A stretch of DNA of 32,062 bases, from the NCBI GenBank assembly GCA_016218715.1, contig JACRDG010000109.1, forward strand, positions 1 through 32,062, written 5' to 3'. The notes under the pieces were generated by a model, which was not told where the DNA came from, did no database searches, and saw only the letters and a program-made list of their open reading frames with translations. How positions within the stretch are numbered: the stretch's first letter is position 1; each line of letters starts with the position of its first letter. The position numbers were made by a program, and so were the translations under genes. Source of the stretch: Desulfomonile tiedjei (GTDB lineage Bacteria; Desulfobacterota; Desulfomonilia; Desulfomonilales; Desulfomonilaceae). Of this stretch, positions 6,506-16,852 are shown in pieces.

Positions 6506-8356
6506 TCAGTCCTTCCTGAGATACTCGCCGGCAAAGTTCCGGACTCCTTTGTTCTGAAGCATGTGGAAGGTCCGCATCCGCTTAACGTGCAGGGGGTTGA
6601 GCGATCCGAGCGGAATATAGATGATCCGCTTCCCCATGGTCCGGGCAAGTTTCTTCCAGCGGGAAGGCGGCGGTTTTCGCGCGACGTAGACAACTCCAGG
6701 TTTTTCCGAGTACGCGATGCCGGCCACCAGGAGTCTCTCATGCCTGCTGGGGACAAAATCGAAATCCTGGTCGGTCCAGACGTCATACATGCGTAAAGGC
6801 GGATAGGACATCACGAAGCCGCCGTGCTCCATCCGACTTATCCCCGGACCCACGATCTGAGCGCCCGGCAACGTCGAGTAGAATGCCATGTCAGACTCTT
6901 GTGAGTGCTCACCGAGCCAGGTCATCTGGAAGGGGTAACGGAAGACATCCTCGTCCTCGTCAAAGATGACCACGACGGACCCGAATTCCATCCCGCCCTG
7001 TTCGTCGGTCTTCACATAGATTCGCTTCTCATAGTACCGGCGCAGCGTTTCCCGTATGTCCGGTCCTCCGCCGAAATCAGCCACGAAAGGTTCGGAGTCG
7101 CTCTGGGAGGTCTGGAGCAGATGGTTGGCGTGCTTTATCAAGGCAGTGCCCCACCGTTCGACTTCCACGTCTTCGGGCGGGTACGAGCAGATGTCGACTT
7201 CATTGGGATCCGCAGTTTCCCATTTTCGTTTGAGGTGTTCCTTCCATTTGGCGCTGTTCACGGCCTTCAGGCGGTACCGGTTGGACCTGAAGAACGTGCG
7301 CAGCTTCTTGTGAAGCACTATCTTGTGGCCGTGGAACATCAAGGCGTCTTCGTTCAACAGAATCGACGACGGATCGAAGGGATCGTTGGACCACTCGTAA
7401 TCGGAAAAATACTCGTGAACGTGGTACGCGAAATCCTCGTCCATGGCGGATCGCGCGGAAGCGACGAGGTGGTAGAGGTCCGGGAGGATTTCTCCCTTCA
7501 ACGAGAGCCACTTCCGGAGAAACTTCACCCAGGTCAGCCTGGCGTATTCGGGCACTTCCTGACGGGTTTCGCGGGTGAAGTGCGCGGAGGCCTGCTCGAT
7601 GAGGGACAGGATCAACTCGTGACGATTCACCGGTGGCGGATCGTCCGGAGCGTTCCGCCATTTCTCGAACGCTTCGGTTATTCTCGGGATTTCGGTGAAT
7701 CCCTTCTTGAGCGAGTCGGGATGCAGCGGAGCCAGCACGGCCGCGTTCACTCCGGTTTTGAGCAGAGGAAGTGCCTGTGGTCGCTGGAGGTGTTCCAGCA
7801 CGCCGGGGATATGCGCCAAACCGCCGACAAAGAGCACTTTTTCGTACTTGCGTGCAGCTTCCTGCAGACGTGCAGCCATGAACGTCTCGCGCCGCGTATT
7901 GTCCGGGTCATTGGAGAGTGAGTTGCCGGATTTCGCCAGCAGATCGAGGAACGTCCCTTGTCCTATCCGATCGATAAGGTAGGCGTCGGGAATCCGGTCC
8001 AGAAAGAGCGGGAAACGCACCGGCAAAGGATCGACGAACCAGAGGTCGATGTCTCGTTCCAGCGCTGAGCGCACCGCCTCCTGGGTGCCGTCGGAGCCTT
8101 CCAGGATGAGGACTGCGCTCTCATTGGACGCGGTCTCGTACAGGATCACGGAATGATACGGGAGCCTCCTGGCGCCGGAAACGATTTCGTTGCGCAGCGC
8201 GTGGGGCAGTTCGACGCAGATGCAGTCCGGGTTCTCTTCTGCAACGAGTGTCCTGACCAGCACCGAGAATTCTACGCGGTAGTGCAAGACGCCGGCGAGA
8301 GTTATATTCTCGAATCGTACGACATCAGACCAATTTTGGCCCATCAAGTGAGGCAC
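6506..8356 (-). CDS. Large protein with TraB/TIKI-like N-terminal half, partner of a MoxR-like ATPase; function unknown
   Basis: A 616-residue soluble protein. The first ~200 residues look like the TraB/ChaN/TIKI superfamily of putative hydrolases: a Gly-x-x-His at residues 22-25, Val-Glu-Leu-Pro at 48-51 and a Gly-Gly-Leu-Ala-His block with His182. Such His and Glu residues could form a metal or catalytic site, but this is inference. The last ~250 residues are dense in aromatic and Gly/Pro motifs (for example Met-Thr-Trp-Leu-Gly-Glu-His and Gly-Pro-Gly-Ile-Ser-Arg), as in a folded enzymatic or binding domain; I cannot name it. No signal peptide or membrane segment is seen. GTG 8356 is preferred because GGAGAG lies 4 bases upstream; ATG 8344 is an alternative. 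The start overlaps the upstream ATPase gene by 32 bases, so the two are translationally coupled. Confidence 0.8.
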   Translation of the reverse strand: MPHLMGQNWSDVVRFENITLAGVLHYRVEFSVLVRTLVAEENPDCICVELPHALRNEIVSGARRLPYHSVILYETASNESAVLILEGSDGTQEAVRSALERDIDLWFVDPLPVRFPLFLDRIPDAYLIDRIGQGTFLDLLAKSGNSLSNDPDNTRRETFMAARLQEAARKYEKVLFVGGLAHIPGVLEHLQRPQALPLLKTGVNAAVLAPLHPDSLKKGFTEIPRITEAFEKWRNAPDDPPPVNRHELILSLIEQASAHFTRETRQEVPEYARLTWVKFLRKWLSLKGEILPDLYHLVASARSAMDEDFAYHVHEYFSDYEWSNDPFDPSSILLNEDALMFHGHKIVLHKKLRTFFRSNRYRLKAVNSAKWKEHLKRKWETADPNEVDICSYPPEDVEVERWGTALIKHANHLLQTSQSDSEPFVADFGGGPDIRETLRRYYEKRIYVKTDEQGGMEFGSVVVIFDEDEDVFRYPFQMTWLGEHSQESDMAFYSTLPGAQIVGPGISRMEHGGFVMSYPPLRMYDVWTDQDFDFVPSRHERLLVAGIAYSEKPGVVYVARKPPPSRWKKLARTMGKRIIYIPLGSLNPLHVKRMRTFHMLQNKGVRNFAGEYLRKD

Positions 8357-9167
8357 GGCTCTCTCCGGTAATCTGGACTATTGACTGATCGAGCGCGTTG
8401 TGAACGCCCATGTCCGAGTAGAAATTCAGCAATCTGTGAGCATAGCGAGCGATGTTCAGCCCGTCTCGAACGCTGAGGTCTTCATCCCTGCTGTGGGACA
8501 TCTGAAGCACGTCCACCACGTGTTGGATCAGTTCGTCCGAGGGCCCGTCCAGCTTACCTCGCAGGATTCGAAATTCTTCCTCTCTCGTAGGATAATCCAT
8601 GTGTATGGCAGGTTGCAGTCTGGAGTGAATGTACTCGGGGACCTCGAACGTCGACGCGTCTTCGTTCATCGTGACACAGATGCGGAATTCGGGCCGTGCC
8701 TTGATCTCCACTCCCGCGACGATGGAGTAGACGCTCCGCCGCATATCCAGCAAGGGCGCGATGGAGGCCCAGCTCTTTTCGCTCATCCGGTTGCCCTCGT
8801 CCAGAAGGCAAACCCCGCCTCTGAGCATCGCGGAGACGAGCGGCGAAGCCACATAGCGGATCTTCCCATTGTCCGCGATTACCGGAGAGATGATAAGATC
8901 GTCCGGCTTAGTATCGACGGTGCACTGAAAGATGTAGAGGTCCTGCTTTATCTCCTTCGCTGCCGTGATTGCCAGAGATGTCTTGCCGACGCCGGGCTTT
9001 CCCAGGATTCGCGGCTGCATCGGCGGATCGATCCCGTCGTCCGACCATGCCGCGAGGAGCTGCGTCAGCGGTTCCTCCATCCCCACCCATTCGACTTCAA
9101 GGGAGGGTGGGTCCATAAGGAAGATTTCCACACCCTTGATGGTAATTCTGTCAGTTTCTTTGCTCAT
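8325..9167 (-). CDS. MoxR/CbbQ-like AAA+ ATPase
   Basis: A 280-residue AAA+ ATPase of the dynein-related (AAA_5) type. Walker A is Gly-Lys-Pro-Gly-Val-Gly-Lys-Thr at 56-63, Walker B ends in Asp123-Glu124, sensor 1 is Asn168 and the arginine finger is probably Arg183. Proteins of this type work as hexamers that remodel or load cofactors into a partner, often one with a von Willebrand factor A domain. No such partner is encoded nearby; instead the next gene is the TIKI-like 616-residue protein, which overlaps it by 32 bases and is the likely client. A near-consensus promoter lies about 80 bases upstream. The ribosome binding site before ATG 9167 is weak. Confidence 0.9.
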   Translation of the reverse strand: MSKETDRITIKGVEIFLMDPPSLEVEWVGMEEPLTQLLAAWSDDGIDPPMQPRILGKPGVGKTSLAITAAKEIKQDLYIFQCTVDTKPDDLIISPVIADNGKIRYVASPLVSAMLRGGVCLLDEGNRMSEKSWASIAPLLDMRRSVYSIVAGVEIKARPEFRICVTMNEDASTFEVPEYIHSRLQPAIHMDYPTREEEFRILRGKLDGPSDELIQHVVDVLQMSHSRDEDLSVRDGLNIARYAHRLLNFYSDMGVHNALDQSIVQITGESRASLDGPKLV

Positions 9168-9248
9168 GCTCGTACCGTGCCGGTCACGCGGTCCACAGAC
9201 AGCCCAGTGATCGGCAAAACCTTTCTCTGAGAAAATGCCTATCCAGCA

Positions 9249-9277
9249 ATTCTATGCCAGCGTGCCCGAGGTGTCAA
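9249..9277 (-). promoter_or_regulatory. Sigma-70-type promoter of the AAA+/TIKI-like operon
   Basis: On the - strand TTGACA (9272-9277), a 17-base spacer and TAGAAT (9249-9254) match the consensus at 11 of 12 positions. The predicted start near 9242 leaves a leader of about 75 bases. Confidence 0.78.
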
Positions 9278-9495
9278 CGTGCCGGGGAGCGGGAGTGAAG
9301 AACCGATTCAGAGAGAAGCCGAGCTGTGCGAGGTTTTTCGAGGGGTGGAAGTCTGTGCCTGAAGAGCAGGCTTAGGATGCCGGTGACCGACGGGAATCGC
9401 GTCGTTCGGGGTTTTTTCTCGACAGATGCGGTTCGCCTCGCTCACCACATCCTACGGAATCTCGTGACATGCCAAGGGCCGTCTTCGATCGTAGC

Positions 9496-9546
9496 GACCG
9501 GCCTCCGTGCCGGTCATTCAGAATGGCCCGGCAGAGACGCCGGGCC
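9496..9546. repeat. Two adjacent perfect hairpins in the gap before the barrel-protein gene
   Basis: The 444-base gap 9168-9611 holds the promoter above and this element: GACCGGC-6 nt-GCCGGTC (9496-9515), a short ATTCAGAAT palindrome, then GGCCCGGC-6 nt-GCCGGGCC (9525-9546). It lies just past the end of the - strand barrel-protein gene and could stop its transcript, although no T-run follows. It resembles a REP-type dispersed repeat. I see no gene in the rest of the gap. Confidence 0.55.
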
Positions 9547-9611
9547 CTAGCGAACGGCAGGATGGACTCAGCTACAGTGTGACACCGTTGTTATGAAATG
9601 ACGTACCAACT

Positions 9612-10631
9612 TCACCAGACAAAGCCGACTTGCCCGCCGATAATGCTGTTGTACGCCTGGAACCGGAGATCGTACTCGACCTTGGGAAAGATGCCACCAA
9701 CGAAGGGCACCCTCCCCAGGCGCTCGCCCGGATCGACCTTGGCCTTGCCGTTCATGATGTCCAGTTTGAAGAACGCTCCGACGGTGACTGGACCGCGGCT
9801 CAAGGAGCAGTCGACAAAGGTTTCGACGAAGTACCCTCCGGGTCCGAATTCGTTGGACAGGGCGAGGACCGGGAACGCTCGGCCGGCAATGCGAATACCG
9901 CCGGTATTGAATAAGGTTGATACGTCCAGCGCGGTTTCGATATAGTTGACGGACCCCCAGAGAAACGGAGAACCGACCACGCCTCCGTTCACGGTGAGTT
10001 GTCCGCCCATACCCACCCTTTTCGCCATAACCCCCAGGATGGGGATATAGGTGGAGATGGCCAGGTCTGCTCTGTCACCGTAAACCGCGCGCTGGGGGGG
10101 CAAGACGGTTTGGGTGGTTTCACCCTTGAACTGAAAGTTCTCCAGCCGCAATCCCGCCACCAATGCGACCGCGGGGTAGAGATTGTACGTCACAGCGACC
10201 CGCAGATTGTACCATTCAGCGCTGGTCTGCCAGTCTCTTGCAGCCGAGGAGGAAGCGAAATTAGTGAATGAATAGTTGGTCTCGGAGGAACCACGGGGTG
10301 CGAAGAGCCATCCTCCGCCCACCAGGAACCCTGCACCCGCGCCGTTTATCGGCAGGACAAATTCCGTCCAGAGGCCGCTCAGACGGTAGCTGACGGAAAA
10401 GGATGACAAGCCACCGGCAGGTGAAGGAGGCGGTGGATGAGGAGCAACAATGGATATGACCGGGACGGCGGGTTGGGACAGGTACCCGATGAATATCGTG
10501 GGTTCGACGGCTGGGCCAAAAGGATTTGTACCCGCCGACCCGAATAGCCCGTCCGCGGAGACCCGTGCCGGCATGGCTCCGATCAGGGATACCAGGAGAA
10601 CGACAGTGCCCCATACCCATTTCAGCTTCAT
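9612..10631 (-). CDS. Predicted outer-membrane beta-barrel protein
   Basis: A 339-residue secreted protein. A signal peptide (Lys-Leu-Lys, then a hydrophobic core, cleavage probably after Val-Ser-Ala at residue 26) is followed by alternating polar and hydrophobic strands rich in Gly, Tyr, Phe and Trp. It ends in Val-Gly-Phe-Val-Trp, an aromatic C-terminus as expected for recognition by the BAM machinery. A proline-rich loop (Pro-Pro-Pro-Pro-Ser-Pro) sits near residue 67. I recognise no specific porin family, so transport or structural roles are open. It has its own promoter and is followed by the hairpin pair at 9496-9546, so it is probably a single-gene unit. The ribosome binding site is weak. 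Confidence 0.75.
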   Translation of the reverse strand: MKLKWVWGTVVLLVSLIGAMPARVSADGLFGSAGTNPFGPAVEPTIFIGYLSQPAVPVISIVAPHPPPPSPAGGLSSFSVSYRLSGLWTEFVLPINGAGAGFLVGGGWLFAPRGSSETNYSFTNFASSSAARDWQTSAEWYNLRVAVTYNLYPAVALVAGLRLENFQFKGETTQTVLPPQRAVYGDRADLAISTYIPILGVMAKRVGMGGQLTVNGGVVGSPFLWGSVNYIETALDVSTLFNTGGIRIAGRAFPVLALSNEFGPGGYFVETFVDCSLSRGPVTVGAFFKLDIMNGKAKVDPGERLGRVPFVGGIFPKVEYDLRFQAYNSIIGGQVGFVW

Positions 10632-10675
10632 CGCATTGCAATCCGATCATCGTTCACGTGGAAAACGGCGCTTGT

Positions 10676-10704
10676 AGCCTATCGGTTTCACGGCGAAATG
10701 TCAA
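10676..10704 (-). promoter_or_regulatory. Promoter of the barrel-protein gene
   Basis: On the - strand TTGACA (10699-10704), 17 bases and TAGGCT (10676-10681). The -35 is perfect and the -10 is poor (3 of 6). It is placed about 45 bases before the start codon. Confidence 0.5.
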
Positions 10705-10761
10705 CATGAAATGGCCTTGCTCCTGACGTGGCGTCATCAGGCCGATTGCCGCCGCAGGGAA

Positions 10762-11946
10762 TCAAACCCATCGAGTGAAGACGATGTTGGAGAGAAGACG
10801 GCCGCGAGCGGTCAATGCCAGATGGTCGCGGGACAGGACAAACAGACCCGCGGATTCAAGGTCGCCGATCGTCTCCAGAACGAACGCCCTGGCATCCACG
10901 CGGTACCGCTCGCCGAGTTTCACGAGATCCAGCCCCTCGACCAGGCGCAGTCCCATGATCAGAGCCTCCCGGAAGCGGATATCCGGGGTGAAGTCCATGA
11001 ACGTGCCTGCCGGAAGCCTGTCTTCGTTCACGTTTCGCTCGTATGCAGCGACATCCGCCGCGTTCGCGTAACGCGCACGTCCGGTCATTCCGTGAGCTGC
11101 GGGCCCAAGCCCAAGGTAGGGACGATCGCGCCAGTACTTGAGGTTGTGCTTCGAGCGGTGACCTTCTGGCGCGAAGTTGGATATCTCGTACTGGGCATAC
11201 CCTGCTTCAGCCAAGCTCGAACACACATCGAGATAGATGTCCGCGGCGAGATCCTCGTCCGGAGCAAGGATCTGTCCCGAGCGAATCATGGCGTCCAGCC
11301 TCGATCCTTCCTTCACCTCGAGCAAGTACACGGAAACGTGTTCGGGGCCCAGGTCGATCGCTGCCCTGAGGCTTCGTCTCGCGGATTCTCTGGTTTGGCC
11401 GGGAAAACCTCCGATCAGATCCAGCGATATGTCGTCGAATCCGGCCCGCCGGAGGTCGTCGAACGTTCTGAGAGCATCCTCAACCGTATGGGGCCTCCCC
11501 ATGGCCGCCAGCTCCGTGTCGTCAAACGACTGTATGCCGAGACTTGCCCGATTGAGGCCCGCGTCTCGCATCCCGCGCACCTTCGAGGCATCTGCGGTGG
11601 CGGGATTGATCTCCAGGGTTATTTCGGGGTTCCGAGCGAAAGGGAATACCTGTTGGCAGGCCTCCAGCAGCTCTTGAATCTGCCGGGGCTCCAGCAGAGA
11701 CGGCGTGCCGCCCCCAAAGTAGAGCGTATCTGCTCCGAAGTCGCTCAGCAGCTCTTGCAAAGAGGGTTCGCGGCTCCAGAGTTCTATCTCCCGTTTTACT
11801 GCGGTGATGTAGCGTTCCACAGCCGAGACATCGTATGGGGATGTGGAGAAAGCGCAGTAATGGCAACGAGTTCTGCAAAAGGGGACGTGAACGTAGATCC
11901 CCAGCGAGGCTTCTTCTCTGGGAAATACCGGCGAGAAATCTCTCAT
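10762..11946 (-). CDS. hemW: HemW-like radical SAM heme chaperone (coproporphyrinogen oxidase-like)
   Basis: A 394-residue radical SAM protein. The cluster motif is Cys24-x3-Cys28-x2-Cys31 followed by Ala-Phe, which lacks the fourth Cys of true HemN oxygen-independent coproporphyrinogen oxidases. A Gly-Gly-Gly-Thr-Pro SAM-binding motif and a His-Asn-x-x-Tyr-Trp motif typical of HemW are also present. HemW binds heme and is thought to deliver it to respiratory enzymes, fitting an organism rich in b- and c-type hemes such as DsrM and DsrJ. It lies 88 bases downstream of the cyclase gene on the same strand and may be co-transcribed, although the two are not functionally linked in an obvious way. 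ATG 11946 has only a weak ribosome binding site. Confidence 0.9.
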   Translation of the reverse strand: MRDFSPVFPREEASLGIYVHVPFCRTRCHYCAFSTSPYDVSAVERYITAVKREIELWSREPSLQELLSDFGADTLYFGGGTPSLLEPRQIQELLEACQQVFPFARNPEITLEINPATADASKVRGMRDAGLNRASLGIQSFDDTELAAMGRPHTVEDALRTFDDLRRAGFDDISLDLIGGFPGQTRESARRSLRAAIDLGPEHVSVYLLEVKEGSRLDAMIRSGQILAPDEDLAADIYLDVCSSLAEAGYAQYEISNFAPEGHRSKHNLKYWRDRPYLGLGPAAHGMTGRARYANAADVAAYERNVNEDRLPAGTFMDFTPDIRFREALIMGLRLVEGLDLVKLGERYRVDARAFVLETIGDLESAGLFVLSRDHLALTARGRLLSNIVFTRWV

Positions 11947-12034: not shown

Positions 12035-14056
12035 TCAGGTGTCCGAAGGCTGGAGGTCGTCGGATCTCAGACCGGTCAAGCTGTAGAGGAGCATCGGAGT
12101 CTCGATCCCTTTGAGCTTCACTTCTCGCGTGCTCCCTATTTCGAGATGCCTGGAGAGCCTTTGATATACGGCAGGCGATATCAGGATTTCTCCCGGCAGG
12201 GCATTGCTTTCAAGCCTGAAGGCAATGTTGATGGAGCTTCCGTAGCCCGTATATTTCCGGCGTTTCTCGGATCCGATGCTCCCGAGGACCACGATCCCTG
12301 TGTTGATACCGATTCCCATTTTCAACGCCGGCAATCCCAACCGCTCGCTCTCTACATTCAGTCCCTCCATGGCTTGTTGCATTTCCAGCGCGCAGGCAAC
12401 CGCTCGCTGAGGATGGTCCGCCATGGGACGCGGAGCCCCAAAGAACATGAGCATCCCGTCACCCATGATTTCGTTAATGGTACCCCTGTGGCGAGAGACG
12501 ATTTCTGTCATCCTTTCAAAGTACCGGTTGGCGGTCTCGACCACAACCAGCGGAGAATGGGACTCGGTCAGAGGGGTGAAACCCCTTAAATCTGAGACGA
12601 GGAATGTGACTTCCCTCAATTCCCCGTTGAGATTGACCCCACCCGGCCACTTCAGTATTTCTTCGACCACCTCGTCGCTCACGTAACGACCGAAGACGTC
12701 CCGCACATCCTTTCGTTCCTGTTCGGTGGCGAGCGACTTGAAAAGAATGAGCGCTGCCGCTGCCGGAACATAGACCAACATGGGCTGAATCAACGGTACA
12801 TCAACAGAGCGAAGAAAGAAAACCGCCACCGAGATACACGCCAAGAGAATCGGCACAATGAATGCGACAAAGATCTGTTTCCCTGGATCCAGGCGGGAGC
12901 CGATAGCGATGAAACCCAGCGTCACTACGAGCGCGCCGAGTAACACGGAGGGGAATACGTTCATCCGCGTCAGGAACCGGCCATTCATTATGGTGTCAAG
13001 CGCCGCTGACTGAACTCGGCTCAATACCAGTTCACTTTCCAACGGACTGGCGCCGATGTCGGAGGTGCCAGTGCAGGCTACTCCTATAATGACTATCTTA
13101 TCACGGTACCTGGATGGTCGGGTGGTATCCTGTGTCTCGCTAAGGAGATCCACCGCTGAGTAGCCCTTGAAGGATTCCCACGAGGGTTTCCAATGAATGA
13201 GGAGGTTTCCCGCGGCATCCACCGGGATACTCAGGGCTTCGCCGCCCCGAGGAATCTCGATCAGCCCCTCCTGAGTCCATCTCGCGTTCGCTGGATCGGC
13301 TCCCTCGGCGGCGACCAAGGCGGCCAAGCCCAAGCTCGGAACGAGTCGGTCCTTGAGTCTCAAGAACAGCGGTACTCTGCGATAGATATCGTCCGGGTCG
13401 GGGGTCGCCTTGATATGCCCCACCGCGTGCGATGATCTGATAACTGGCAATACGGGAAGTCCCGAATTCCGTAGTTCCGTGATCTGGTATGGCCTGGCGT
13501 TCGGGGGCATTCTGAGGTGCCATGCCTTTTCATAGAGGGCATCGGCTCTCGCGGGATCCGCGTCCTGGAGGAGAGGATCTCCTTTTTCCCCCAACCGAAT
13601 GGGAGCCAGCGGACTCACAACCCTCCGCGAGTCGGCTACCGCCTTAAACAGGGCTTCATCACCTTCGGCACTCTTTCCACGGGTCGAGTAGAGGATGTCA
13701 AACACCACGGCTCGGGCACCGAATTCGGTCAATCGCTCGACGATTCGGGCACTCTTCTCCCGATCCCACGGCCACTGTCCATACGCTTCAATCGCACTGT
13801 CGTCCACATCCACGTGAACGATGTTTTCGTTCACCGTCGGCTTTGAAAAAGCGCGTAATTTTAAGTCGTAGAGCTTCCAGTCCAGGATGTCGAACCAGCC
13901 TGGATTCAGGAACAGGAAGGCAAAGGACAGGAGGCACCAGCCAACGCTCACGCGAATGCCCGAACGAAAGAGACGCTTCCCCGGCGACTCGCCGGACAGA
14001 TGGGCGCTTGTGTCCATAGGCAGGAGAGCCCTTCGATTCAAGAGTGGCTGAATCAC
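12035..14056 (-). CDS. CHASE2-domain adenylate/guanylate cyclase
   Basis: A 673-residue class III nucleotide cyclase. One N-terminal membrane segment (about 32-52) is followed by an extracytoplasmic CHASE2 sensor domain to about residue 350, then three membrane segments and a cytoplasmic cyclase domain from about 480. The metal-binding Asp489 (Ser-Asp-Leu-Arg-Gly-Phe-Thr) and Asp533 (Met-Gly-Asp-Gly) are present, as are the transition-state Asn and Arg of the Asn-x-x-x-Arg motif. The substrate-choosing position is Glu529 rather than Lys, and its partner is Thr, so ATP or GTP use cannot be decided from sequence. GTG 14056 overlaps the stop of the upstream gene (GTGA), suggesting coupling; ATG 14017 is an alternative start. 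Confidence 0.92.
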   Translation of the reverse strand: MIQPLLNRRALLPMDTSAHLSGESPGKRLFRSGIRVSVGWCLLSFAFLFLNPGWFDILDWKLYDLKLRAFSKPTVNENIVHVDVDDSAIEAYGQWPWDREKSARIVERLTEFGARAVVFDILYSTRGKSAEGDEALFKAVADSRRVVSPLAPIRLGEKGDPLLQDADPARADALYEKAWHLRMPPNARPYQITELRNSGLPVLPVIRSSHAVGHIKATPDPDDIYRRVPLFLRLKDRLVPSLGLAALVAAEGADPANARWTQEGLIEIPRGGEALSIPVDAAGNLLIHWKPSWESFKGYSAVDLLSETQDTTRPSRYRDKIVIIGVACTGTSDIGASPLESELVLSRVQSAALDTIMNGRFLTRMNVFPSVLLGALVVTLGFIAIGSRLDPGKQIFVAFIVPILLACISVAVFFLRSVDVPLIQPMLVYVPAAAALILFKSLATEQERKDVRDVFGRYVSDEVVEEILKWPGGVNLNGELREVTFLVSDLRGFTPLTESHSPLVVVETANRYFERMTEIVSRHRGTINEIMGDGMLMFFGAPRPMADHPQRAVACALEMQQAMEGLNVESERLGLPALKMGIGINTGIVVLGSIGSEKRRKYTGYGSSINIAFRLESNALPGEILISPAVYQRLSRHLEIGSTREVKLKGIETPMLLYSLTGLRSDDLQPSDT

Positions 14057-14781
14057 TTGTCGCCGGGTCGTTCACGAACTCCTTGCGTGCCGGTCGTGGT
14101 TCCGGGTTTCTTTGTGTCCAGGGTGCCCGGTAATCGCTTCAAGGGCTTCTTACCGTCCGCAGGACCCGACTCCCTCGGCCTGAGTTCGAACCCCTTGCCT
14201 GGAGCAGTCTCTACGGGGAGGACGACCCTGTTGAAGCGATCGTCTTTGGCTATCTCGGCAAGGGCTTCCTTAAGCATTCCTCGGTTCTTTTCGGGCGTGG
14301 TCGCGATCCTCACCCATTGGCCCCCTTCCCCCAGTTTCGACCAATCGACGCGGCTTTTTGTGGAATTCACGTAGAAGACGATCCATGAACCCGGCACTTT
14401 CTTGCCAAGCTCGATCTGCACGGGGGAATCGTCTCCGAAGATCGTGGAAACAGTGCCCCCTTTGATGGAAGCATCAGGTTGTCTGGAATTGGGGAACAGG
14501 ATCGTCACGGTGCCGTCGGCCGTAAGCCCGAAGATGGTGAGAAAACCATCCTCTTCCGCTTGCAGCGTAAAGGTCAGGCGGTCGCCTTCACGAAGATCGG
14601 TGGCTGGTTCGGCGTCACCCCATACCTGGAGACCAATCTTCTTCGGACCGGGGTCTCCGATCGAAAGAAGCTCCCGGGCAGGCTGCGGAATGCTGCTCTC
14701 GAATCCAGTTCCGCTTGACTCAATGGCCACAAACCCACACATGAGTACGACAAGACCCATAACGACTCTCGTGCAAACCAT
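14053..14781 (-). CDS. Exported protein with a DUF4384-like domain
   Basis: A 242-residue secreted protein. After a signal peptide (residues 1-20, cleavage probably near Phe-Val-Ala) comes a ~100-residue beta-rich domain with a Gly-Asp-x-Leu-Thr-Phe strand, a Gly-Phe-Leu-Thr-Ile-Phe strand and Ile-Leu-Phe-Pro-Asn, the pattern of DUF4384. That domain is usually found fused to or near caspase-like and kinase domains in bacteria. The C-terminal ~60 residues are a low-complexity tail of Lys, Pro, Gly and Thr. The longest frame begins at a TTG at 14802, but ATG 14781 is better, with a GGGGGTG site just before it and a normal signal peptide. It is the first gene of the cyclase operon and divergent from the caspase-like gene. 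Confidence 0.75.
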   Translation of the reverse strand: MVCTRVVMGLVVLMCGFVAIESSGTGFESSIPQPARELLSIGDPGPKKIGLQVWGDAEPATDLREGDRLTFTLQAEEDGFLTIFGLTADGTVTILFPNSRQPDASIKGGTVSTIFGDDSPVQIELGKKVPGSWIVFYVNSTKSRVDWSKLGEGGQWVRIATTPEKNRGMLKEALAEIAKDDRFNRVVLPVETAPGKGFELRPRESGPADGKKPLKRLPGTLDTKKPGTTTGTQGVRERPGDK

Positions 14782-14844
14782 CGTCACCCCCGTTTTCCCC
14801 AAAGATTGACACGTTCAGCATCCCCCGTTCGAAAACAGATATGG

Positions 14845-14873
14845 ATTATACACGCCATCGAGTCTGGTCTCAA
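14845..14873 (-). promoter_or_regulatory. Promoter of the DUF4384-cyclase operon
   Basis: On the - strand TTGAGA (14868-14873), a 17-base spacer and a perfect TATAAT (14845-14850), 11 of 12 consensus bases. Start would be near 14838, about 57 bases before ATG 14781. Confidence 0.8.
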
Positions 14874-15124
14874 AGATATTCTCAAACGTTCACCGTGTCG
14901 GGATTGCACAGCGACTACCACTGAGGGAAGAGGAAATAGGCCGGTTATTCGGAGAAGTAGAATATTGTTCTCCTTCAGACAAGGGGAGAAAGGCAACATG
15001 CAGTTTCCCACTTAAGAGTGAGGGTTGTGAGGGGTTTTCAAAGTAGGAACGAGCTCCATTCACATGATGGGCCTTTCGGTAAACCACACCTAAGTGAATT
15101 GTTAAGCTCAAGATCAGGTTTCAC
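14874..15124. other. Intergenic region between divergent operons
   Basis: About 250 bases of the 472-base divergent gap, with no convincing gene. It holds an inverted repeat GGAGAA-11 nt-TTCTCC (14951-14973) whose right arm can also pair with GGGAGA just downstream, and AAGTGA/TCACTT arms near 15093 and 15120. These could be operator sites, but no regulator gene is adjacent to name one. Confidence 0.35.
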
Positions 15125-15153
15125 TTGACGGAAACAATAGCAACTGGGAAAAT
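15125..15153 (+). promoter_or_regulatory. Possible promoter of the caspase-like gene
   Basis: TTGACG (15125-15130), a 17-base spacer and GAAAAT (15148-15153). The -35 is good (5 of 6) and the -10 moderate (4 of 6). It lies about 100 bases before the chosen start. Confidence 0.4.
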
Positions 15154-15253
15154 AATCGAACCAATCAGACCGGCGATGGATCGGGGGACTGGAAGGACAT
15201 TCCTGTTTCGAGAATTTCCCAATTTGAGAATTTCAGGGTGGGGAGCAGAATCG

Positions 15254-16852
15254 ATGAAAAGAATGAGCGGAATCCGCACGGCGGCAAGGGCGGGAGAAGG
15301 CTTCCTCCGAGCGGGGATTTGCGTGCTCTGGTGTTTGCTGGCTGGATCAATGTTCTATTGGTCCACGATCGGCCAGGTATGGGCCGCGGAGGACCAAGCA
15401 GCAGGATCTGCAGCCGCGGCAAGGGCAGAGTCCCTAGATAAGGACGTGACCGCCATTCCCACGTTGGCCGGTGGGGAACTCTTCGCTCTGGTGGTGGGAG
15501 TATCGAAGTATGCGAATCCGGGGATTCCTGCGCTCAATGTAGCAGAAAAAGATGCACGGGATTTCGCCGCGTTTCTCGGCCGACAGCGAGAGCTGTTCAA
15601 GAATACTCGCGTGACGCTCCTCACCGACGAAAAGGCCACAAAAAAAGACGTCGAGAAGTTTCTGTTATACGAACTCCGGAAGGCGGGCAAAGACGACACG
15701 ATCTTCATTTTCCTCAGCGGCCATGGAGCTGTAGACCCGAAGCGTCCGGGTGAATTCTTCTTCCTGACGCATGACGCGGATCCTGAATTCATGGAACTGA
15801 GCGCGGTGAACATGTCCGGACTCAGCTTCCTGAGGAGCCTGGACTGTCCTCGGGTGGTTCTGATTGCCGACGCCTGCCATGCCGGCGGATTCTCCAAATG
15901 GCGTACTAAAGCAGTCATGCCCATGAAGCAGTTTATCCACGAGATGAGTTCGTCAGCTGGCCGGGTCGTGATAACGTCCAGCAGGCCGGAAGAGTTCTCT
16001 CTTGAAGAACCCAACCAGGGGAACAGCCTGTTTACGAGGTGGTTCCTCAAGGGGCTGGAGGGCGCTGCGGATTACGACGGTAACGGAGCTGTGACGATTA
16101 ACGAGGCGTACCGCTACGTGTACGAACGAACCAAGACCGAAAGCCAGGGAGCGCAACACCCCCAATTCGAGGGAACGGTTGAAGGGGAGTTCCCTCTGGC
16201 CGTGTCCACCGATCTTGCGTCCAAGATTCCAACTCAATTGGAACTCTTTACGGACCCCCCGGGCGCGGATGTCTTCGTGGCCGGGAAACTTGCCGGGAAA
16301 ACGAATCCCGACGGCTCTATGTACCTCAAGTACCTTCCTCTGGGCAGGCCGCTGCCCGTCACCGTGAAAAAAGAGGGATGGACGGACCAGAAGATAGGAC
16401 CATTCGTCTTCTCGGACAAGAACCTGGATATCAAGGCCAAACTGGTCAAGCTCGCTCCTGCCCTTGCATCTCTTGAAATCGTAACCGATCCCGGTGGCGC
16501 TTCTCTGACGATTAACGGTCGGGCAGCGGGCAAGACAGACTCGCGGGGCAAGCTCATGGTTCATGGCCTCCAGGTCACTGTGCCTCACACGATTCAAGTA
16601 GAGAAAGACGGTTTTGCGAGTGACACGCTCGTGGTCACCATTCCGGCGGATCACACCGGTTCCAAGTTCCGCGGAGATCCCCTCAAACTGTCAAAGAAAG
16701 TTCCGGACCCCAAAGGCCGTGAATCCACACAGCCGGCAGGGAGATCGGAAAGATACGAAGCACCTTCGACGCCCCGTGAGGAGCGGTCCGCCCCGCCTTC
16801 GTCCGAGGGCGGAAGCTCGGGTGGCCAGAGTTCGGAAAGAATGGGATTGTAA
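15254..16852 (+). CDS. Exported caspase-like (C14) protease with EF-hand-like loop and two PEGA domains
   Basis: A 532-residue protein. The signal peptide (residues 1 to about 40, cleavage after Val-Trp-Ala) sends it across the inner membrane. A caspase-like domain follows, with catalytic His157 (Ser-Gly-His-Gly) and Cys208 (Asp-Ala-Cys-His-Ala-Gly). Residues 273-284 form a canonical EF-hand-type loop (Asp-x-Asp-Gly-Asn-Gly-x-Val-Thr-x-x-Glu) inside the small-subunit region, so calcium control is possible. Two PEGA repeats, each starting with a Thr-Asp-Pro-x-Gly-Ala motif, span about 328-397 and 405-475 and may bind surface polymers. A Ser/Pro/Gly-rich tail ends the protein. ATG 15254 is chosen over an upstream TTG because it has GGGGAG 8 bases before it and gives a standard signal peptide. 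It is divergent from the DUF4384-cyclase operon. Confidence 0.88.
   Translation: MKRMSGIRTAARAGEGFLRAGICVLWCLLAGSMFYWSTIGQVWAAEDQAAGSAAAARAESLDKDVTAIPTLAGGELFALVVGVSKYANPGIPALNVAEKDARDFAAFLGRQRELFKNTRVTLLTDEKATKKDVEKFLLYELRKAGKDDTIFIFLSGHGAVDPKRPGEFFFLTHDADPEFMELSAVNMSGLSFLRSLDCPRVVLIADACHAGGFSKWRTKAVMPMKQFIHEMSSSAGRVVITSSRPEEFSLEEPNQGNSLFTRWFLKGLEGAADYDGNGAVTINEAYRYVYERTKTESQGAQHPQFEGTVEGEFPLAVSTDLASKIPTQLELFTDPPGADVFVAGKLAGKTNPDGSMYLKYLPLGRPLPVTVKKEGWTDQKIGPFVFSDKNLDIKAKLVKLAPALASLEIVTDPGGASLTINGRAAGKTDSRGKLMVHGLQVTVPHTIQVEKDGFASDTLVVTIPADHTGSKFRGDPLKLSKKVPDPKGRESTQPAGRSERYEAPSTPREERSAPPSSEGGSSGGQSSERMGL

What the first reader, a model, noticed from the sequence alone, without database searches (positions are those of the whole stretch)
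6506..9167. Two-gene operon: MoxR-like AAA+ ATPase coupled to a TIKI/TraB-like protein with an unknown C-terminal half
Seen: overlapping genes (32 bases), a near-consensus promoter, intact AAA+ motifs, and a 616-residue partner with TraB/TIKI-like His and Glu motifs in the N-terminal half. Known: MoxR-type ATPases usually act with von Willebrand factor A proteins, and a TIKI-like (DUF5682) protein occurs in some MoxR operons. Inference: this is a reduced MoxR system in which the ATPase acts directly on a TIKI-like enzyme, with a large C-terminal domain I cannot assign.
Basis: partly seen in the sequence, partly recalled or inferred. Interest (0 to 1): 0.65.

Follow-up and report, generated by a model that had tools for sequence, protein, structure and literature searches.

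The report
Two-gene AAA+ machine without VWA partner
Two neighbouring genes make an ATP-driven protein and a dedicated partner whose most conserved half belongs to no known family; the two are inherited together, and the helper gene that such ATPases normally use was not found beside them.

Summary
The two genes are real: an AAA_5 ATPase (8325-9167, minus) and a 616-residue partner (6506-8356, minus), overlapping by 32 bases. The partner's N-terminal third has the TIKI/TraB fold (profile match to DUF5682/YehM; structural matches to TraB, HopBA1, ChaN). Its C-terminal 311 residues have no convincing match in Pfam, NCBIfam, PDB or DUF5682.

In 395 genomes of the phylum, partner and ATPase occur in exactly the same 64. 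In 62 of 71 loci the ATPase gene lies just upstream; in the 8 others that could be tested one orthologue lies elsewhere in the genome. VWA genes were never found within 10 kb of the pair (54 and 35 genomes tested).

The ATPase is nearer to MoxR and NorQ/CbbQ proteins than to YehL, so a reduced yeh operon is unlikely.

I infer a remodelling machine whose partner replaces the VWA adaptor. Function, client and C-terminal fold are unknown; AlphaFold had four admissible sequences and failed.

The parts
8325..9167 (-). AAA_5 ATPase of the MoxR clade, 280 aa
   Evidence: Pfam AAA_5 62.4 bits (cut-off 22) and AAA_3 29.7 (cut-off 27); PDB profile search: midasin, CbbQ, NorQ; family alignment A2
8979..9008 (-). 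Walker A of the ATPase (residues 54-63)
   Evidence: motif name recalled
8796..8813 (-). Walker B of the ATPase (residues 119-124)
   Evidence: motif name recalled
6506..8356 (-). partner protein, 616 aa: TIKI domain + helical middle + unassigned C-terminal domain
7757..8314 (-). TIKI/TraB-fold domain, about residues 15-200
   Evidence: hhalign to the DUF5682 alignment, prob 96.9, E 1.3e-10 (family columns 17-314, so it runs into the helical middle); structural matches to TraB, HopBA1 and ChaN within residues 2-195
8282..8284 (-). TIKI His25 (first motif), lost in 11 of 71 loci
7811..7813 (-). TIKI His182 (second motif), lost in the same 11 loci
6509..7441 (-). C-terminal domain (residues 306-616) without a known family; motifs CSYPPED, DxRET, TWxGEHxQESDM, GPGI
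8325..8356 (-). 32-base overlap of the two genes
9249..9277 (-). sigma-70-like promoter match upstream of the pair
   Evidence: consensus match only

Best explanation
The pair is a self-standing two-component AAA+ machine. The ATPase forms a ring like other MoxR-clade ATPases (inferred). The 70-kDa partner is its dedicated co-factor (shown only by adjacency and co-occurrence). The C-terminal domain of the partner is the common, most conserved module and probably takes the place that a VWA adaptor holds in NorQD or CbbQO: it docks on the ring and/or carries the client, and ATP hydrolysis remodels it so that a client protein is matured, loaded or released (inferred). The TIKI domain is a fused recognition or hydrolase module whose catalysis is possible in most lineages but dispensable in some (His loss shown, function inferred).
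For: Partner (E <= 1e-100) and ATPase (E <= 1e-60) occur in the same 64 of 395 phylum genomes, none unpaired. The ATPase gene lies upstream on the same strand within 800 bases in 62 of 71 loci, 39 of them overlapping by longest-ORF starts; 8 of the 9 others have one strong orthologue elsewhere in the genome; the ninth (L080) starts 124 bases from its contig end. Of 72,556 plasmids one carries either gene, and it carries both. PF05762 and PF13519 hits were never within 10 kb of the pair (54 and 35 genomes). Both TIKI histidines are lost in 11 of 71 loci, at least three times on the tree, while identity in the C-terminal half exceeds that in the TIKI part in 2410 of 2415 locus pairs. The ATPase profile matches midasin, CbbQ and NorQ structures. 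The partner is found in 16 of 18 genomes of the window's family, two of them only as partial matches, which suits a physiological role.
Against: No physical interaction was tested. The C-terminal fold is unresolved (mean pLDDT 44.6 and 38.0), so a role as adaptor is inference. No client gene recurs next to the pair across lineages (neighbours were clustered, not annotated one by one). The ATPase itself lacks the CbbQ_C domain of real NorQ/CbbQ proteins, so the NorQD analogy is loose. Correlated inheritance shows linkage, not mechanism, and the 395 genomes are related to each other.
Confidence: 0.5

Rival explanations
1. One reading: the ATPase switches or loads a TIKI-type hydrolase, and the C-terminal half only docks it to the ring.
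For: TIKI fold supported; both histidines kept in 59 of 71 loci.
Against: Both histidines are absent in 11 of 71 loci in at least three lineages while ATPase and C-terminal domain stay; the TIKI part is less conserved.
Confidence: 0.2
2. The C-terminal domain is a very diverged VWA domain without MIDAS, so this is a NorQD/CoxDE-like pair with a TIKI domain fused to the VWA protein.
For: By eye the order DxRxTLR, then VVVIFDED about 33 residues on, then VVYVA and IIYIPLGS resembles DxRxxxR, LVxLxDVSGSM, VVIxSDG and IWLNPL of VWA_CoxE proteins. The best weak hhalign segment against 5 YehP proteins and against 14 CoxE-type proteins covers the DxRxTLR region in both; against YehP the score ranks second among 27 families compared.
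Against: hhalign probability 0.2-0.6%, E 0.09-0.32; against the CoxE set the score is mid-range among 26 control families (rough controls, some built from antisense ORFs); with the merged 19-sequence set the best segment moves elsewhere; no DxSxS/T in the window protein; no Pfam VWA hit in 50 members.
Confidence: 0.2
3. A defence or conflict system, as with other MoxR-based systems.
For: MoxR-vWA pairs drive several predicted conflict systems (PMC7159879, passages read); one copy is on a Neochlamydia plasmid and two lie on contigs classed as viral.
Against: Present in 16 of 18 genomes of the window's family and in genomes of 1.6-1.8 Mb; no PADLOC match for the partner and only weak generic AAA hits for the ATPase (best TRIP13, E 0.001); no match of the partner in 50,697 phage records. 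Neighbours were not annotated one by one, so a defence context is not excluded.
Confidence: 0.07

Closest known systems
YehL-YehM(DUF5682)-YehP(VWA)-YehQ(SWIM) type operon of E. coli and others
   Same: An AAA_5 ATPase gene before a gene whose N-terminal part is a TIKI/DUF5682 domain.
   Different: No VWA gene beside the pair; C-terminal half without detectable relation; the ATPase is not YehL-like (5 of 8 YehL-type proteins match the A2 profile, at 11.8-16.3 bits).
NorQ-NorD and CbbQ-CbbO
   Same: Small AAA_5 ATPase of about 270-280 aa with one large dedicated partner protein (PMC9976466 abstract; PMC13036017 abstract and introduction).
   Different: ATPase without the CbbQ_C domain that a real NorQ/CbbQ of the phylum shows; partner without recognisable VWA domain or MIDAS DxSxS.
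TraB/PrgY/gumN family (TIKI superfamily)
   Same: N-terminal fold and His/Glu motifs.
   Different: 616 aa with a large extra C-terminal domain and a linked ATPase; far below the TIGR00261 cut-off (12.8 against 178.35 bits).
MoxR-vWA ternary conflict systems (PMC7159879, passages read)
   Same: MoxR-clade ATPase with a further conserved component.
   Different: No vWA component found; [quoted passage not shown]

Membership tests
AAA_5 / MoxR-clade ATPase | Score over curated Pfam cut-off | tested here: met
   AAA_5 62.4 bits (cut-off 22), AAA_3 29.7 (cut-off 27)
AAA_5 / MoxR-clade ATPase | Walker A and Walker B residues intact across the family | tested here: met
AAA_5 / MoxR-clade ATPase | Helix-2 hairpin insert, hexameric ring | not tested
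   No structure of the ATPase was predicted; only sequence alignment to midasin through that region
CbbQ/NirQ/NorQ family | CbbQ_C domain (PF08406) | tested here: not met
   Not among the hits of the window ATPase at E <= 1; present in the comparison protein L149 with 96.7 bits
MoxR-VWA pair (NorQD, CbbQO, CoxDE, RavA-ViaA) | VWA gene next to the ATPase gene | tested here: not met
   PF05762 in 31 of 54 pair-bearing genomes, on another contig or over 700 kb away; PF13519 in 29 of 35, nearest 12.3 kb away (G003). Contig ends limit the test in fragmented genomes
MoxR-VWA pair (NorQD, CbbQO, CoxDE, RavA-ViaA) | Partner carries a VWA domain with MIDAS | tested here: inconclusive
   No Pfam VWA hit, no DxSxS/T in the window protein; profile comparison not above controls; fold unknown
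TIKI/TraB superfamily (N-terminal domain) | TIKI fold | tested here: met
   Within residues 2-195: TraB family subunit Z 13.5 (rmsd 5.1, 170 aligned), HopBA1 Z 8.6, ChaN Z 8.1; first unrelated fold Z 7.3. The model is of low mean confidence and Z near 8 is borderline by the tool's own note, but profile comparison agrees
TIKI/TraB superfamily (N-terminal domain) | 2His/2Glu catalytic residues (PMC6254334, passages) | tested here: inconclusive
   Two His and the Glu of the ELP motif are present in the window; the second catalytic Glu is assigned by eye; both His absent in 11 of 71 family members
DUF5682 (PF18934) | Score over curated cut-off | tested here: not met
   Window protein 11.3 bits against 26; 4 homologues exceed it (L043 27.7 bits; G148, G061, G133), in those over the first 80-90 profile positions
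DUF5682 (PF18934) | Homologous C-terminal half | tested here: not met
   hhalign A7 against A4: probability 0.2%, E 0.34

The most novel reading that the evidence does not exclude
A MoxR-clade AAA+ ATPase has an obligate partner that is not a VWA protein: a new adaptor or effector domain, fused to a TIKI domain that has become a pseudo-enzyme more than once, forms with the ATPase the minimal, self-sufficient machine of an undescribed, widespread cellular process in the window's phylum (Desulfomonile-related bacteria and others) and in at least one chlamydial relative.
Probability: 0.5. Interest if true: 0.68.

Novelty: new variant of a known kind. Interest (0 to 1): 0.55.

Why it matters
MoxR-clade ATPases are described as typically working with VWA proteins (PMC7159879 passages, PMC13036017 abstract). 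A pair that is inherited together without a neighbouring VWA gene offers a minimal two-protein system for asking what the VWA partner really does, defines a conserved domain that Pfam does not hold, and gives a natural series of TIKI domains with and without catalytic histidines in the same setting.

Tried and rejected
Reduced yehLMPQ operon: rejected as origin of the ATPase and of the C-terminal half; the TIKI domains are homologous.

C-terminal domain as VWA: tested with 5 YehP, 14 CoxE-type proteins and a merged set of 19; not above 26 rough control families except for rank 2 against YehP. Of 20 fetched CoxE places, 6 gave no ORF with DxSGS and were dropped.

Operon with a third gene: a HemW-like gene lies upstream in 11 of 14 loci of the window's family but not elsewhere; other recurrent neighbour clusters occur in single lineages or are short or antisense ORFs, judged from locus lists and sequences, not annotated. 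Cluster 0 (24 loci) is a chain of response-regulator and sigma-54-type proteins, judged by eye.

NorQ/CbbQ membership of the ATPase: not met for CbbQ_C. Before a re-check I had labelled the window genome's paralogue L049 as NorQ/CbbQ-like; it is MoxR-proper (AAA_3 217.9 bits), while L149 is a NorQ/CbbQ.

Structure prediction: the tool admits only window proteins and loci from the search for related loci or the DNA search, so only 4 sequences were used; both models are poor. Foldseek on the full model gave one hit at E < 0.001, a Tetrahymena complex IV chain, recorded in the PDB as 'TraB family protein'. Foldseek on the C-terminal model gave nothing at E < 0.1. No fold is claimed for residues 306-616.

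Spread outside the phylum could not be surveyed: the single genome-contig scan with the window protein found one locus, and the genome search needs a genome handle as centre, of which I had none outside the phylum.

Terminator downstream of the pair: 3 candidates in the region against 3.1 expected in shuffles, so none is claimed.

Literature: 10 searches. 'DUF5682' and MoxR + TIKI + vWA each found 0 papers; MoxR + TraB + AAA+ found 2, seen only in the listing; two or more of YehL/M/P/Q appear in 2 papers, seen only in the listing. Papers seen beyond listings: PMC7159879 (passages), PMC6254334 (passages), PMC9976466 (abstract and outline), PMC13036017 (abstract, outline and introduction).
Full report
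What is there. The window carries two overlapping minus-strand genes: a 280-residue ATPase at 8325-9167 and a 616-residue protein at 6506-8356. They overlap by 32 bases, and this overlap is the same in 14 of 14 loci of the window's own family, with a GTG (12) or TTG (2) start for the second gene. A sigma-70-like match, TTGACA-17-TAGAAT, lies 81 bases before the ATPase start. A tRNA-Phe gene with its own promoter-like site follows the second gene. Neither protein has a long hydrophobic stretch, so both are probably cytoplasmic (maximum 19-residue Kyte-Doolittle mean 1.15 and 1.18). The nearest named relative is a Desulfomonile tiedjei metagenome bin (75% identity).

The ATPase. It passes the Pfam cut-offs of AAA_5 (62.4 bits) and AAA_3 (29.7 bits). 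Its family profile matches solved midasin, CbbQ and NorQ structures. It is not a CbbQ/NorQ protein proper: the CbbQ_C domain is absent from its hits. Against the family profile a MoxR-proper paralogue of the window genome scores 46.2 bits, a true NorQ/CbbQ 52.8 bits, and 5 of 8 YehL-type ATPases 11.8-16.3 bits, the other 3 giving no match. In 64 of 64 genomes with a match at E <= 1e-60 there is exactly one such match.

The partner, N-terminal part. Profile comparison with eight DUF5682 proteins, including E. coli YehM, aligns family columns 17-314 with probability 96.9 and E 1.3e-10. Proteins of about 400 residues are found by the family profile over the same region; three of them were checked and pass TIGR00261, TraB. 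The structure model is poor overall (mean pLDDT 44.6), but its residues 2-195 match a TraB family subunit (Z 10.6-13.5), HopBA1 (8.6) and ChaN (8.1), with the Pasteurella toxin core, RRSP and EreC lower in the list; the first unrelated fold has Z 7.3. Z near 8 alone would be borderline by the tool's own note; together with the profile result the TIKI assignment is well supported.

The partner, C-terminal part. Residues 306-616 match no Pfam model convincingly in 50 members (best E 0.0033, to a Mor model in 6 members), no PDB sequence (best E 0.15) and not the C-terminal half of DUF5682. In 395 genomes the domain was not seen outside this architecture except as fragments: pieces cut by contig ends in G151, G212 and G235, decayed pieces in G387 and G417, and one 33-residue match in G304 that I did not follow. 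Median pairwise identity among 70 loci is 0.49 there against 0.37 in the TIKI part.

Pairing. I used 71 loci: the window, 26, plus L011, L080, L081 and L122; L001 was dropped as the same contig as L025. In 62 the ATPase gene lies upstream on the same strand within 800 bases (39 overlap by longest-ORF starts, 15 with 0-60 bases between, 8 with 89-720). In 8 of the other 9 the genome has one strong ATPase orthologue elsewhere, three times 6-10 kb upstream on the same strand. The ninth (L080) starts 124 bases from the contig end, and its 20.7-kb record holds no ATPase match. In 395 genomes drawn from the phylum the two families occur in the same 64 genomes, and none has only one; in a few of the 64 the partner is cut by a contig end (G151, G212 and G235; in G117, on a 3.2-kb contig, it lies in two pieces). 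The partner scores leave a clear gap: the weakest of the 64 is E 9.1e-118 and the next match is 1.7e-23. For the ATPase the weakest is 1.7e-92, but that search was cut at 1e-60; in the 11 genomes searched at a looser limit the next matches were 8.1e-14 or weaker. Among 72,556 plasmids only one, from Neochlamydia, has either gene, and it has both. The Fisher test ignores relatedness and should not be read as a probability.

No VWA. VWA_CoxE (PF05762) occurs in 31 of 54 pair-bearing genomes, always on another contig or more than 700 kb away. VWA_2 (PF13519) occurs in 29 of 35, nearest 12.3 kb away and on the other strand (G003). In fragmented genomes contig ends limit this test. By contrast, of nine DUF5682 places that I looked at, six have an annotated VWA gene nearby (E. 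coli, Iodobacter, Sinorhizobium, Hymenobacter, Deinococcus, Rhizobium), Streptomyces and Methylosinus show none annotated in the stretch, and the Nonomuraea record has no annotation there.

What is essential. Both TIKI histidines are kept in 59 of 71 loci and both absent in 11; L036 could not be scored. On a quick tree of the C-terminal half (70 rows, L047 left out, L036 not counted) the loss needs at least four changes, three of them forced by well-supported branches; L081 has a long branch, so its place is unsure. Of 25 C-terminal positions that I picked because they are conserved, 60 of 71 loci keep all and 10 differ at one; only the distant L047 differs at many. That choice favours the C-terminal half, so the unbiased figure is the regional identity above: C-terminal higher in 2410 of 2415 pairs. 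The TIKI active site is thus not the common denominator; the C-terminal domain with the ATPase is.

How it probably works. Shown: adjacency, co-occurrence, conservation pattern, TIKI fold, no VWA gene nearby. Inferred: the ATPase forms a ring, the partner binds it through the C-terminal domain, and ATP hydrolysis remodels the partner or a client held by it, as NorQ remodels a linker of NorD (PMC13036017, abstract). Presence in 16 of 18 genomes of the window's family (two as partial matches; the two misses are 81-82% complete) and in genomes of 1.6-1.8 Mb suggests a housekeeping rather than a defence role. I could not identify a client: a HemW-like gene (HemW in the window) is upstream in 11 of 14 loci of the window's family only.

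Hidden VWA? By eye the C-terminal half has a strand order and a DxRxTLR motif reminiscent of VWA_CoxE proteins. Profile comparison does not support it: E 0.09 to 0.32, mid-range among 26 rough control families against CoxE and second of 27 against YehP. I keep it as a rival because a good structure model would settle it.

Novelty. The parts are known kinds (MoxR-clade ATPase, TIKI domain), the combination is a new variant, and the C-terminal domain is unassigned. I found no paper on it in ten searches (listed under Tried and rejected), which cover only open-licence PMC papers.

Noticed in passing
window 10762-11946 (-) and 9168-10761: HemW (TIGR00539, 262.6 bits, cut-off 205.4) lies upstream of the pair; a homologous gene is upstream in 11 of 14 loci of the window's family. 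In the window a stretch of about 1.6 kb with an orphan 339-aa ORF (9612-10631, -) without Pfam or NCBIfam match separates them, whereas in L024 only 107 bases do.
   Followed up: partly
window 12035-16852: CHASE2-adenylate/guanylate cyclase (12035-14056, -), DUF4384 protein (14053-14802, -) and a caspase-like Peptidase_C14 protein with PEGA matches (15125-16852, +) lie side by side.
   Followed up: no
L047:7052-10307 (G020): A divergent pair in a genome of the same class: 317-aa AAA_5 ATPase and 782-aa protein with TIKI motifs; only about 62 columns near its C-terminal end match the family's C-terminal profile (prob 82.7). Possibly a second type of the same system.
   Followed up: partly
L155:3541-4319 and L156:4364-5320: Decayed remnants of the partner gene in genomes G387 and G417, which have no ATPase orthologue at E <= 1e-60, consistent with joint loss.
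   Followed up: partly
L086, L096, L037 (genomes G389, G190, G087): The pair is split by 6-10 kb of other sequence on the same strand while both members are kept.
   Followed up: no
L122:7087-9800: The pair sits on a 231-kb plasmid of Neochlamydia sp. S13, the only hit outside the phylum with a named host.
   Followed up: no
L080 and L081: Two IMG/VR contigs classed as viral carry the partner; L081 also has the ATPase and has lost the TIKI histidines. They may be bacterial fragments.
   Followed up: no
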